Below are positions 35,571 to 44,209 of a stretch of 64,000 nucleotides of DNA, piece after piece. Under the pieces are notes generated by a model. That model did not search any database. It was not told where the DNA came from and saw only the letters and a list, made by a program, of their open reading frames with translations. The stretch covers positions 3,286,001-3,350,000 of the forward strand of contig NZ_CP023278.1 of NCBI RefSeq assembly GCF_002896875.1, read 5' to 3'. This stretch comes from Nostoc sp. CENA543 (GTDB lineage Bacteria > Cyanobacteriota > Cyanobacteriia > Cyanobacteriales > Nostocaceae). Position numbers and translations under genes: made by a program. Within the stretch, counting starts at the first letter, position 1. Each line of letters starts with the position of its first letter.

Positions 35571-35616
35571 AAGGCGACACCCGGATTTGAACCGGGGGAT
35601 AAAGGTTTTGCAGACC
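35571..35616 (-). repeat. Left attachment repeat: displaced 3' fragment of tRNA-Cys
   Basis: 46 bp identical to 44164-44209. Holds the tRNA 3' half from the anticodon region to the acceptor end and is not a complete tRNA. Confidence 0.92.
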
Positions 35617-35684
35617 GGCACTGCTGAGGCTTAGGCGGCTCAAATGCCCATATTGTCGGCAAATACAGATAAACACCCATTGAC

Positions 35685-35737
35685 TTTGGCTATCACATTG
35701 GCTATCATTTGGGGATAAAGGTTTTGGATAGCCAAAT
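35685..35737. promoter_or_regulatory. Left-end TTGGCTATC repeats and second partial attachment core
   Basis: TTTGGCTATCAC (35685-35696) and ATTGGCTATCATTT (35697-35710) are direct repeats, and TTTGGCTATCC lies inverted at about 35726-35736. Between them GGGGATAAAGGTTTTG (35711-35726) repeats 16 bp of the attachment core exactly 116 bp further in. The block covers the integrase start region and may bind integrase. Confidence 0.55.
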
Positions 35738-36929
35738 GAATACCGCTAAGAAACCCAGAGGTAGTGTAGGGGTTGAGGAATACAGAGGTAAGCTGAGACT
35801 CAGATTACCTAGAGTAGTCACCCAGGCAGGTCAGAATAGATATCTGAATACTGGGTTAGATGCCAATGAGATTAATAGGCGCAGGGTAGCCGCAGTAGCT
35901 AGCTGGATAGAGGAAGAAATACTCACAGGGAATCTTGACCCGACATTAGACCGCTATAGTGAAAAGTTGGAGACTTACAGGCAGCCTCAGTTAACCCTAG
36001 TGAAGCCTAAGACCCCCCAGACTGACCTAATGGAACTCTGGGATAGGTACTGTGAGTTTATGAAACCTCAGCTAGCCTCTACTACATACCTAAAGGACTA
36101 TGTGAGGAAATACAGAAACCACATCAAGTCCCTACCCACCAAAGACATAACCCAGGCGATCGCCATTAGAGATTACTTGTTAACTGAGTTATCACCTAAT
36201 GCAGCTAAGAGAGTCTTAACCTACCTGTCAGCCTGCTGTAAATGGGCTGTAGGTTCAGGACTGCTAAAGGATAACCCATTTGTAGGGATGTCAGAGGATA
36301 TTAAGCTACCTAGACATGATCGGGATGCCATAGACCCTTTCAGCCGAGATGAGATGAATACCATCATCAAGGCATTTGAGGATACTAGAACCCACTATGC
36401 GCCTTTTGTTAAGTTCTTGTTCTGGACTGGTTGCCGGACTGGGGAAGCGATCGCGCTTCAGTGGAAGCATATAAACCCTGAGTGTACCCAGATAACCTTT
36501 GCTGAGTCCTATGACAGCCAGCTAGATATTAGAAAGACTACCAAGACAGGTAAAACAAGGAAGTTCCCATGTAGCAGCCAAGTTAGGGAACTATTACTAA
36601 ATATCAGACCCTCTGACCCAGACTTAGAGAGTTTAGTATTCACTAGTCCCACAGGTGGCATTATCAATAACACTAGATTCTCTAATCAAGTCTGGAAAGG
36701 TGGCAAGATGGGCAATAAGAACTACAGAGGGGTCATCCAACAGCTAATGAATGAGGGTAAGATTAACCGCTACAGATGCCTGTATAACACTAGGCACACC
36801 TTTATTACCTTGATGCTGGCTGAAGGTCTAACAGTTACTACAGTAGCCAAGTTGGTAGGGAACAGCCCAGAGATGATCCTTAAGCACTATGCAGGGAACA
36901 CAGTACCCCTAGAGTTACCTAATATTTAG
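35736..36929 (+). CDS. Tyrosine recombinase/integrase of the element
   Basis: 397 residues from the ATG at 35736; an in-frame TTG at 35709 would add nine residues encoded by attachment-like DNA. Core-binding domain (about 100-190), then the catalytic domain with Arg in WTGCRTGEAIALQW (R234), NTRHTFITLML with R353, and the nucleophile in ILKHYAG (Y385). It inserts and excises DNA at the tRNA-Cys repeat. Beside the displaced tRNA fragment, as usual for tRNA-targeting elements. The stop overlaps a possible small minus-strand gene. Confidence 0.92.
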   Translation: MNTAKKPRGSVGVEEYRGKLRLRLPRVVTQAGQNRYLNTGLDANEINRRRVAAVASWIEEEILTGNLDPTLDRYSEKLETYRQPQLTLVKPKTPQTDLMELWDRYCEFMKPQLASTTYLKDYVRKYRNHIKSLPTKDITQAIAIRDYLLTELSPNAAKRVLTYLSACCKWAVGSGLLKDNPFVGMSEDIKLPRHDRDAIDPFSRDEMNTIIKAFEDTRTHYAPFVKFLFWTGCRTGEAIALQWKHINPECTQITFAESYDSQLDIRKTTKTGKTRKFPCSSQVRELLLNIRPSDPDLESLVFTSPTGGIINNTRFSNQVWKGGKMGNKNYRGVIQQLMNEGKINRYRCLYNTRHTFITLMLAEGLTVTTVAKLVGNSPEMILKHYAGNTVPLELPNI

Positions 36930-37084
36930 CCTTTGATGTAGCACTGTTGGTAATAAAGCAAAGCCCTGGAAAGATAGCCAAGGGCTTTTCTTTTGTGTAA
37001 GTAATCAAATGTTTCAGGTTCATGGTGTTCTAGTTCTAGCTCTAGTCTCTCAATAAGGCTGATTATGGTTTCCTCAGTGACCAT
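36926..37084 (-). CDS. Possible small protein of 52 residues
   Basis: Open from ATG at 37084 to TAA at 36926, overlapping the integrase stop by four bases. It translates to a mixed helical, soluble-looking protein (MVTEETIISLIERLELELEH at its start; tail LLYYQQCYIKG). A weak AGAG lies upstream. A hairpin, AGCCCT...AGGGCT (36962-36986), lies inside it and might be an integrase terminator instead, so the call is uncertain. Function unknown; an excisionase-like helper is possible only by position. Confidence 0.4.
   Translation of the reverse strand: MVTEETIISLIERLELELEHHEPETFDYLHKRKALGYLSRALLYYQQCYIKG
36962..36993 (+). terminator. Likely integrase terminator
   Basis: AGCCCT (36962-36967) pairs with AGGGCT (36981-36986), followed by TTTCTTTT, 33 bases after the integrase stop. 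Confidence 0.6.
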
Positions 37085-37119
37085 CGGTAATCTCTATAAA
37101 TCTTAGTTGACATATTAGA

Positions 37120-37137
37120 AGTATACAAATGAACACA
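37120..37137 (+). promoter_or_regulatory. Shared 18-bp motif upstream of an RHH gene
   Basis: AGTATACAAATGAACACA; a 17-of-18 match, AGTACACAAATGAACACA, is at 39997-40014 in front of another small-gene cluster. Both follow a TTGAC. Possible shared promoter or operator. Confidence 0.4.
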
Positions 37138-37148
37138 AAGAAGTTTCT

Positions 37149-37286
37149 ATGAGGCGATATACCGCACATCAGAACATTCGGCTATCCCAAGAGGACAAGG
37201 AGAAACTATTAGCACTCTGTAAGTCTAGAGGGTTAAAGCCAGCCGAACTAATCAGACAACTAATAGACAACCTAGTAAACAGATAA
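37149..37286 (+). CDS. Small ribbon-helix-helix-like protein (45 residues)
   Basis: Begins ATGAGGCGATATACC. The pattern NIRLSQEDKEKLLALCKSRG then KPAELIRQLIDNLV fits a beta strand followed by two helices as in CopG/Arc-type DNA-binding proteins. It is followed after 7 bases by the next gene, so probably the first gene of an operon and a candidate regulator of it. Confidence 0.6.
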   Translation: MRRYTAHQNIRLSQEDKEKLLALCKSRGLKPAELIRQLIDNLVNR

Positions 37287-37293
37287 GGTATTT

Positions 37294-43080: not shown

Positions 43081-43342
43081 GTTACCTCCAGTTACCTCTA
43101 GTTACCTCCAGATACTTTTAGAGGTAACTGCTATGATTCATATAGGGCAAGCTTTTCAGCTTATCAGTTACCTAGTTACCTCTATTTTCTCTTAAAAAGG
43201 GTCTACAGTTATATATAGGACTTTTTAAGCTCATAACAGAGGTAACTAGGTAACTCAAGGGCTAATCTCTAGGTTATATAAGGCTTGTAGTAGTTACCCT
43301 TAAAGGTAACTAGAGGTAACTGATAAGGTAACTTGAGGTAAC
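43081..43342. repeat. Thirteen copies of GTTACC(TC)/GGTAAC
   Basis: GTTACC starts at 43081, 43091, 43101, 43167, 43175 and 43293; the inverted GGTAAC starts at 43133, 43241, 43249, 43305, 43315, 43327 and 43337. Several neighbours are exactly 10 bp apart, one helical turn. Gene-free. Looks like an iteron or operator array. Confidence 0.75.
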
Positions 43343-43375
43343 TTGAGGTTCAACCGCTAACTCAAAGGGTAAACC

Positions 43376-43873
43376 CTACTCAACATCACAGGTATTAAGT
43401 ACCCCTGCATTGGGGCTTTCTCTTATTGCTTTAGCAAAAGCACTAGTACCTAAAGCCGCATAACTATAACTATCTAGTATGGCATCTAGCTCTTTTAAAC
43501 CCTCCGGTGGTAATACCTTCACTAGCTCCAGATAATCAGAACTCCTAAAACCAGAACTAGACCACCAAATAATCCCATAATCTGTTCTATCAAATGTCTG
43601 GATAACACCAGGGTCATTTGCAACTAATATGTAATCTAGTTTACCATCTACCCCTTTGAACTGGTACACCAGAGCATCTAAAGCTACCCCAATGGTATAA
43701 ACCTTACACTTAGTTCTATCAAAAGGCTCTATTTTGGTTTGCTGCTGTTCTTGTACCTGGGGCTTCAAGATGTGCGAGATTACCGCCAAGGGTATAACTA
43801 TTAATAACCAGATACTAAGTACCTTCTTAGGGTTCTCTTCAATAAGCTTTGTAATCTTACCCAGCATTTGCAT
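43376..43873 (-). CDS. Membrane-anchored element protein, 165 residues
   Basis: One N-terminal membrane helix (about 18-37: KVLSIWLLIVIPLAVISHIL) then an extracytoplasmic or cytoplasmic domain with a WWSSSGF segment and two cysteines (near 56 and the C-terminus). No family recognised. Sits between the GTTACC array and the right attachment site; the array lies beyond its 3' end. Confidence 0.55.
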   Translation of the reverse strand: MQMLGKITKLIEENPKKVLSIWLLIVIPLAVISHILKPQVQEQQQTKIEPFDRTKCKVYTIGVALDALVYQFKGVDGKLDYILVANDPGVIQTFDRTDYGIIWWSSSGFRSSDYLELVKVLPPEGLKELDAILDSYSYAALGTSAFAKAIRESPNAGVLNTCDVE

Positions 43874-43978
43874 AATGAGTATTTAATATTACTAACCTTA
43901 GTTTATTGCGGCTAATACTCAAGGTCAAGTAAAGTATTACACCCTGCTAAACTAATAACCACTAGCCCCATAAAATAA

Positions 43979-44007
43979 CCCCTTAGAAGCTAATAACCTC
44001 TAAGGGG
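43979..44007. terminator. Perfect 9-bp hairpin near the right end
   Basis: CCCCTTAGA (43979-43987) pairs with TCTAAGGGG (43999-44007). On the minus strand it is followed by TTATTTTA. Could insulate the element edge. Confidence 0.4.
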
Positions 44008-44090
44008 CTAAGTTTAGACACCTGAAGAACTTTAAAGATAGTTGTTAAATATAAGCCGCACCTAACAGCATTTAGTCAGCTAGTACCCCT

Positions 44091-44114
44091 TTTGGCTATC
44101 AGTTTGGCTATCAC
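44091..44114. promoter_or_regulatory. Right-end TTTGGCTATCA repeats
   Basis: TTTGGCTATCA at 44091-44101 and TTTGGCTATCAC at 44103-44114, the same words as at the left end (35685-35710). Candidate integrase arm-type sites. Confidence 0.5.
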
Positions 44115-44146
44115 AAAGTCTCTTTTGATATTTACTTGGCACTCTT

Positions 44147-44163
44147 AAAAGGCTGGAAGCCTT
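44147..44163 (-). terminator. Element-borne terminator for tRNA-Cys
   Basis: Read on the minus strand just past the tRNA 3' end: AAGGCT-TCC-AGCCTT followed by TT. It replaces the displaced terminator at 35515-35535. Confidence 0.6.
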
Positions 44164-44209
44164 AAGGCGACACCCGGATTTGAACCGGGGGATAAAGGTT
44201 TTGCAGACC
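44164..44209 (-). repeat. Right attachment repeat inside intact tRNA-Cys
   Basis: 46 bp identical to 35571-35616; regenerates the 3' part of the tRNA. Confidence 0.92.

What the first reader, a model, noticed from the sequence alone, without database searches (positions are those of the whole stretch)
35571..44209. Undescribed-looking 8.6-kb element in tRNA-Cys
A 46-bp direct repeat, an integrase and a regenerated tRNA-Cys define a mobile element. Its cargo is dominated by RHH proteins, unknown small proteins and repeat arrays, with no phage structural, conjugation or named replication genes. It does not match a standard prophage, ICE or genomic island layout. Its CTAG- and AGA-rich coding style differs from the flanks, while internal GCGATCGC sites suggest a cyanobacterial lineage.
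Basis: partly seen in the sequence, partly recalled or inferred. Interest (0 to 1): 0.8.

Follow-up and report, generated by a model that had tools for sequence, protein, structure and literature searches.

The report
Phage-satellite-like element in tRNA-Cys
An 8.6-kb mobile DNA element sits in a tRNA gene of a Nostoc-like cyanobacterium; it belongs to a group of small elements, apparently not described before, that look like parasites of bacterial viruses, and it carries an unusual replication module in place of the one most of its relatives have.

Summary
In detail: an exact 46-bp repeat, a tyrosine integrase, a regenerated tRNA-Cys, and empty sites in related species. The element is not isolated. 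Gene A and/or C was found at 24 further Nostocaceae loci; 16 are bounded by a repeat of a tRNA gene (Cys, Ala, Val or Thr), 7.0-11.0 kb. A distant cousin lies in another cyanobacterial family.

Common genes: integrase; A (unknown); RHH protein B; C, whose N-terminal half resembles Mu Gp27, a small-terminase-type protein; often D, PD-(D/E)XK-like. Fifteen of the 24 carry a VapE-type helicase, 14 of these with a repeat array directly 3' of it. Three of the 24, plus the cousin, carry a tail tape-measure-like gene; one more has a fragment. Vibrio PLE satellites also carry tape-measure genes.

The window element lacks VapE and tape measure. In the rep slot it has R359, an RHH protein found in only four elements, none with VapE. 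It keeps both a GGTATC/GATACC array and a VapE-type iteron array without its helicase.

Best reading: a member of a new family of phage satellites with a swapped, probably helper-dependent replication module. The satellite life style is inferred, not shown.

The parts
35571..35616 (-). left direct-repeat copy: 3' half of tRNA-Cys left behind by integration
   Evidence: exact 46-bp repeat
35709..36929 (+). tyrosine-recombinase integrase (start may be 35736)
   Evidence: Pfam PF00589 3.1e-12; 83% identical to the integrase of the element at the same tRNA in G003
37149..37286 (+). 45-aa RHH-like protein
   Evidence: ORF; RHH by eye only, no profile run
37294..37959 (+). core protein A, 221 aa, function unknown
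   Evidence: profile in 25 of 217 Nostocaceae genomes, one of them (G007) weak; alignment A6
38068..38364 (+). core protein B, ribbon-helix-helix; overlaps C
   Evidence: RHH_1 0.033, below cut-off; B lies next to C in most elements, not in L146
38333..38839 (+). core protein C, 168 aa: HTH plus long helical hairpin, small-terminase-like in its N-terminal half
   Evidence: profile matches the Gp27-family protein directly before a terminase large subunit in L162; hhalign probability 79-91%; model pLDDT 71.7
38832..39200 (+). 122-aa protein, found only in this element among those scanned
39388..39960 (+). protein D, 190 aa, PD-(D/E)XK-like by motif (invariant E-V-K)
   Evidence: 16-row alignment, E104-V105-K106 invariant; no credible Pfam match; present in 13 of 21 readable A-bearing loci
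40180..40398 (+). 72-aa BrnA-like RHH protein
   Evidence: NF047399 5.8e-6, below cut-off
40846..41690 (.). GGTATC/GATACC repeat array around the small RHH gene and upstream of the 359-aa gene
   Evidence: repeat families D1, I1-I3; same kind of array near R64/R359 in the other three R359 elements
41167..41361 (-). R64, 64-aa RHH protein, divergent from R359
   Evidence: homologue divergent from R359 in L132, L146, L147
41672..42751 (+). R359: RHH N-terminus plus long C-terminal part, in the place where most relatives carry VapE; start may be about 41723
   Evidence: long homologues (274-359 aa) in 4 of 208 Nostocaceae genomes, this one included; alignment A4
42729..42950 (+). P73, small protein overlapping the end of R359
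   Evidence: also in L132
43078..43349 (.). VapE-type iteron array (AGTTACC x13 in 420 bp) in two inverted halves: origin-like
   Evidence: folds with z -9.8; 72% identical over 282 bp to the array 3' of VapE in L069
43376..43873 (-). P165, 165 aa with hydrophobic N-terminus, accessory
   Evidence: homologues in 6 further elements
44164..44209 (-). right direct-repeat copy, element-borne 3' half of the regenerated tRNA-Cys
44165..44236 (-). tRNA-Cys(GCA), intact
   Evidence: ARAGORN; Rfam tRNA 69.6 bits

Best explanation
The element is a member of a previously unrecognised family of phage satellites of Nostocaceae, and of a sub-type whose replication module has been swapped. Proposed working: the integrase recombines attP with the 3' half of tRNA-Cys and rebuilds the tRNA (shown by anatomy). 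On infection by a helper phage the element would excise, replicate and be packaged into helper particles, with C acting as a small terminase that steers packaging to satellite DNA (inferred). Most relatives encode a VapE-type helicase, probably acting on the iteron array 3' of its gene (inferred, resembling SaPI/P4). This element has instead R359, which with R64 probably binds the GGTATC/GATACC array and, having no recognisable helicase, would recruit the helper's replication machinery, as PLE RepA is thought to do (inferred). Its AGTTACC array is a leftover VapE-type origin, or one served in trans by another VapE.
For: Integration: exact att repeats and empty sites; 16 further A/C-bearing elements bounded by tRNA repeats: tRNA-Cys 12, tRNA-Ala 2, Val 1, Thr 1. 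Satellite-like content in the family: C matches a Gp27-family protein directly followed by a terminase large subunit in L162 (hhalign 79-91%, control proteins A, B, D 0.1-0.2%). Tape-measure homologues in L132, L143, L145 and the distant cousin L161, fragment in L147; one query is covered 99% by the tape measure of Leptolyngbya phage Lbo402-yong5, 21.9% identity, E 7e-19. L161 also has Int, VapE, D, A and C. PLE11 encodes its own tape measure and builds chimeric tails, and putative tmp genes lie in other satellites (PMC12987554, passages). Module swap: among 21 A-bearing loci whose rep slot could be read, 15 VapE, 4 R359, 0 both, 2 neither; by my arithmetic 15/5985 = 0.0025, relatedness ignored. 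On the C tree the R359 label needs four changes, at least two forced by strong branches. The most repetitive 420-bp window lies directly 3' of VapE in 16 of 19 VapE elements; in the three other R359 elements it is a GATACCA array near R64/R359; the window has both kinds.
Against: No excision, packaging or helper phage was observed. In 50,697 phage records one A query, one C query and R359 had no match; Int, A, C and D gave no relatives in pattern scans of IMG/VR, where packaged satellites might be expected. C matches Gp27 only in its HTH half; its profile missed the two Gp27 proteins of G064; its model gave no significant fold match, the PDB list being led by ferritins at E 0.15 or more. The tape-measure-like proteins have no significant Pfam or PHROG match (L161 Pfam only). 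The window copy has no tail gene. The R359 model is unusable (pLDDT 56), so 'initiator' rests on position, exclusion and repeats; only four copies exist, and the one in L146 is cut short by a stop (274 aa).
Confidence: 0.62

Rival explanations
1. An integrative plasmid-like or mobilizable element moved by conjugation: D would be a nickase or relaxase-like nuclease and the element would hitch on a conjugative plasmid.
For: Replication helicase plus iterons resemble a plasmid replicon. Larger tRNA-Cys elements with a related integrase carry an ATPase weakly resembling FtsK/SpoIIIE in L071 (0.00031, below cut-off), with a homologue in L073. D has a PD-(D/E)XK-like motif.
Against: No relaxase family matched the ten window proteins scanned. 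The FtsK-like gene was not found in any A-bearing element scanned. Tape-measure genes and a Gp27-like protein are not expected of a conjugative hitchhiker.
Confidence: 0.14
2. A decayed prophage that has lost its structural genes.
For: Phage-type integrase, Gp27-like protein, tail gene in some relatives.
Against: A similar compact 7-11-kb layout recurs in 16 further elements at four kinds of tRNA gene, with the same core genes in most, and again in another cyanobacterial family (L161); decay would not be expected to give the same result repeatedly.
Confidence: 0.08
3. Rival to one step only: R359 is not a replication protein but a regulator or partition protein; the VapE-less elements do not replicate, or use host or helper replication through the AGTTACC array.
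For: RHH proteins are mostly repressors or partition proteins (recalled; best match Arc-like repressor phrog_582 2.1e-5). Small RHH genes related to the N-terminus of R359 precede VapE in L133, L134, L135 and L143. The iteron array persists without VapE. One of the four R359 copies, in L146, is cut short by a stop.
Against: R359 of more than 270 aa occurs only where VapE is missing, in elements that do not group together on the C tree, and in three of the four elements the GATACCA array is the main repeat.
Confidence: 0.4

Closest known systems
PLE satellites of Vibrio cholerae
   Same: Small chromosomal element; initiator without predicted helicase plus iterons in a noncoding region as origin (PMC7145576, passages); own tape-measure gene in some members (PMC12987554, passages).
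   Different: [quoted passage not shown] here a tyrosine integrase and an RHH protein. The window copy has no tape measure.
SaPI/PICI and P4-like satellites
   Same: Tyrosine integrase, helicase-type Rep with adjacent iteron origin, small terminase (recalled; helicase/primase activity of the SaPI and P4 replication proteins from PMC7145576, passages).
   Different: No SaPI, PICI or P4 sequence was compared; the window copy lacks the helicase.
Tycheposons
   Same: Proposed phage satellites (named in PMC11389934, passages); cyanobacterial host and tRNA integration recalled.
   Different: Different hosts (recalled: marine Prochlorococcus); no tycheposon sequence was compared here.
Mu Gp27 (PF11985), small-terminase-type protein (function recalled)
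   Same: HTH region of C aligns with it, 79-91% probability.
   Different: The C-terminal half of C does not align; Gp27 of L162 belongs to a Mu-like prophage, not a satellite.
nifD, fdxN and hupL elements of Nostoc/Anabaena
   Same: Excisable DNA elements of heterocystous cyanobacteria (recalled).
   Different: Those interrupt protein genes and excise in heterocysts (recalled); this one sits in a tRNA gene and regenerates it.

Membership tests
Phage satellite (general) | own integrase and an att site | tested here: met
Phage satellite (general) | no complete set of virion genes | tested here: met
   no capsid, portal, sheath or large terminase among the ten window proteins scanned
Phage satellite (general) | packaging-redirecting gene or site | tested here: inconclusive
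   C is Gp27-like in its HTH half only; no pac site identified
Phage satellite (general) | induced, replicated and packaged by a helper phage | not testable with these tools
   needs infection experiments
PICI/SaPI | helicase-type Rep with iteron origin | tested here: not met
   the two VapE matches of the genome lie outside the window; VapE with 3' array present in 16 of 19 VapE relatives scanned
[quoted passage not shown]
   tyrosine integrase; no RepA_N match among the ten window proteins scanned
Tycheposon | sequence relationship to described tycheposons | not tested
   no tycheposon sequence fetched
ICE/IME | relaxase or conjugation genes | tested here: not met
   no such family among matches; no conjugation-specific model set was run
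Prophage | structural gene module | tested here: not met

The most novel reading that the evidence does not exclude
R359 founds a new class of satellite replication initiator, an RHH DNA-binding head with a new C-terminal part, that repeatedly replaces a self-sufficient VapE helicase and turns an autonomous satellite into one that lives on its helper's replisome; the retained VapE-type array lets rival satellites' helicases replicate it in trans, making it a parasite of both phage and fellow satellites.
Probability: 0.15. Interest if true: 0.8.

Novelty: new variant of a known kind. Interest (0 to 1): 0.56.

Why it matters
A compact satellite-like family in heterocystous, nitrogen-fixing cyanobacteria would extend phage satellites to hosts for which my literature searches found none described. 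The natural swap between a helicase-type and an RHH-type replication module, each accompanied by its own kind of repeat array, would make it possible to ask directly how satellites choose between replicating themselves and borrowing the helper's machinery. Tape-measure genes in some members link the family to contractile-tailed cyanophages.

Tried and rejected
Plasmid and phage record searches with the element or with R359 gave nothing. Pattern scans of viral contigs with D, C, A, profile A5 and the integrase gave no relatives. The fold of R359 was too poor to use. Fold searches with C gave no significant match; 7 of the 50 viral matches listed are named small terminase or DUF3486, the best of these at E 0.28, and the PDB list is led by ferritins. 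PDB sequence searches with C, A and R359 gave no credible match (best 0.009, 0.89, 0.036). No defence-system match for ten window proteins. The two other VapE loci of the same genome have arrays of other words, ACAGGAC and GTGGAAC, so neither looks like a partner in trans. The idea that CTAG is a selected motif was dropped, since dinucleotides account for it. tRNA-Pro near L161 is not shown to be its att site. A search for papers on Gp27 as small terminase gave nothing I used. From the A and C hits I did not fetch G007 (weak A, E 7.5e-5), and the C hit of G151 is the Mu-like prophage. For the tally of rep modules I left out four loci that end or break near the genes (L137, L148, L149, L151); L139 (63-aa VapE remnant) and L150 count as neither. 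The ends of L142, L145, L152 and L076 used were set by hand, not by att repeats, and that comparison has no shuffle control.
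Full report
Check of the observation. The 46-bp repeat is exact, the right copy being the 3' half of an intact tRNA-Cys. The integrase lies just inside the left copy. A modelled empty site was compared with eight related loci: in five an alignment crosses the junction (L081, L082, L050 with 84-173 bp of left flank; L079 and L048 with only 24 bp), in three it starts at the tRNA (L080, L052, L049). The window is part of one 6.99-Mb contig of a 7.2-Mb genome. Composition claims hold: CTAG 9.59 against 3.31 per kb; AGA+AGG 77% against 27% of Arg codons; CGT 0 of 108.

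The family. The integrase has close relatives at tRNA-Cys in other species: 83% identity in G003, 78% in G070. Comparing these elements gave shared genes A (221 aa), B and C (an overlapping pair) and D. Profile A matches 25 of 217 Nostocaceae genomes and profile C 21 of 217, one of the latter being the Mu-like prophage of G151; in a sample across the phylum, C was found in 3 of 386 genomes: the window's own, G070 and G401. I fetched 24 further A- or C-bearing loci (L069, L070, L131-L152). With the window, 17 of the 25 show a tRNA gene with a repeat of 27 bp or more at the other end: tRNA-Cys 13, tRNA-Ala 2, tRNA-Val 1, tRNA-Thr 1; sizes 7.0-11.0 kb. Five carriers are named by the genome-contig scan, matching held contigs by length: Nostoc sp. 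FACHB-892, Nostoc sp. NMS4, Nostoc linckia FACHB-104, Calothrix membranacea FACHB-236 and Nostoc parmelioides FACHB-3921. Of the 21 A-bearing loci that can be read through the rep slot, 18 have C and 13 have D.

Replication slot. Fifteen of the 25 loci carry a protein of 401-585 aa matching my VapE profile; the two of them tested with Pfam, L069 and L070, match the VapE domain (6.8e-45 and 2.5e-50). R359 is present in four (window 359 aa, L147 340, L132 297, L146 274), with no locus having both; L139 (63-aa VapE remnant) and L150 have neither; four loci could not be judged. A family-wide search found long R359 matches in 4 of 208 genomes, the same four, and short RHH-only matches in four more; the L146 copy is cut short by a stop. 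On the tree of C the R359 elements need four changes, at least two forced by strong branches, no fewer than shuffled labels give (mean 3.8); on the A tree L132 groups with VapE elements L070 and L131 (93/84) and L147 with L145 (94/84). The module therefore seems to have been exchanged, though both trees hold long branches and many open forks.

Repeat arrays. I asked, for each of 24 elements, where the 420-bp window with the most repeated 7-mer lies. In 16 of 19 VapE-bearing elements (14 of the 15 with A; L073 and L076 among four without A) it lies directly 3' of VapE, and the word differs between groups: GGTAACC, AGGTAAC, GAGAACA, AGGTAAT, GAACTCA, TAGGACA/ATAGGAC, GGACTCA, TGGTACA, AGGTTAG, CGGCATA. 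The exceptions are L131 (VapE 401 aa), L071 (a tie at 5) and L072. L139, with its VapE remnant, keeps an array there. In L132, L146 and L147 the top window is a GATACCA array near R64 and R359. The window has both: AGTTACC x13 at 43071-43490, then GGTATCA x6 and GATACCA x5 within 40851-41850. GGTATCATACC occurs in 3 of 23 elements counted, all with R359; L147 lacks the exact word. The AGTTACC region folds far better than shuffles (z -9.8) and is 72% identical over 282 bp to the region 3' of VapE in L069. An array 3' of a helicase gene is what I recall of the SaPI origin; function here is inference.

Phage links. C: its three-row profile hit, in G151, a protein that Pfam names Phage_Mu_Gp27 (1.3e-36), directly followed by a terminase large subunit (Terminase_6N 3.2e-12, Terminase_6C 3.4e-17) in a Mu-like prophage with GemA. 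Profile-profile comparison with three Gp27 proteins gave 79% with 17 C rows and 91% with six of them from the window's side of the tree, against 0.1-0.2% for A, B and D. Against this, the match covers only the HTH half, and the C profile did not reach the two Gp27 proteins of G064. That Gp27 is a small terminase is recalled. The C model (pLDDT 71.7) shows an HTH followed by two long helices; fold searches were not significant. Tape measure: L132, L143 and L145 carry 569-622-aa proteins without significant Pfam or PHROG match. tblastn with the L145 protein found the tape measure of Leptolyngbya phage Lbo402-yong5 (99% covered, 21.9% identity, E 7e-19), and weakly (E 0.01, 36% covered) an unnamed gene of Nostoc phage N1 that lies shortly after the tail tube gene; both phages have a tail sheath gene. 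A profile of the three finds a fragment in L147 (1.9e-69) and a 568-aa copy in L161 (1.9e-38), a locus of another cyanobacterial family that also holds Int, VapE, D, A and C; its att site is unknown.

Interpretation. Small size, own integrase, tRNA target, no virion gene set, a small-terminase-like gene, in most members a helicase with its own repeat array, and tape-measure genes in some together fit phage satellites. In print, PLE11 encodes a tape measure and builds chimeric tails, and putative tmp genes occur in other satellites (PMC12987554, passages read); PLE RepA is an initiator without predicted helicase or primase that works only during helper infection (PMC7145576, passages read). The window element would be PLE-like in replication inside a family whose other members are mostly SaPI/P4-like. 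Excision, replication, packaging and the role of R359 are not shown.

Novelty. Searches combining phage satellite, Nostoc, cyanobacteria, tape measure, tRNA-Cys islands and VapE showed no paper on such elements in Nostocaceae in their listings; most subscription papers are not held. A review names tycheposons among newly proposed satellite families (PMC11389934, passages). The kind, phage satellite, is known; the family and the R359 variant appear new.

Noticed in passing
L071 2248-12860, L072 2402-12648, L073 2204-15816: Larger tRNA-Cys elements with a related integrase inserted the other way round: here the 5' half of the tRNA is duplicated, and they carry VapE and (L071, L073; fragment in L072) an FtsK-like ATPase but no A, B or C match.
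   Followed up: partly
L072 9841-12525: Integrase in two pieces around a 457-aa ORF on the other strand, by eye probably an inserted transposase gene.
   Followed up: no
L165 4858-14816: Second integrase + VapE + FtsK-like locus in the window's own genome, with an ACAGGAC array.
   Followed up: partly
L166 8300-10783: 827-aa VapE protein on a 34-kb contig of the same genome, with a GTGGAAC array in a window starting inside its 3' end.
   Followed up: no
window 4630-5931: Tandem array of about ten 137-bp units.
   Followed up: no
window 3462-3672, 31185-31249, 56133-56379, 59542-59594: Runs of 7-bp tandem repeats.
   Followed up: no
L140 5165-5782: A fusion of an RHH domain with a GIY-YIG nuclease domain inside one of the related elements.
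   Followed up: no
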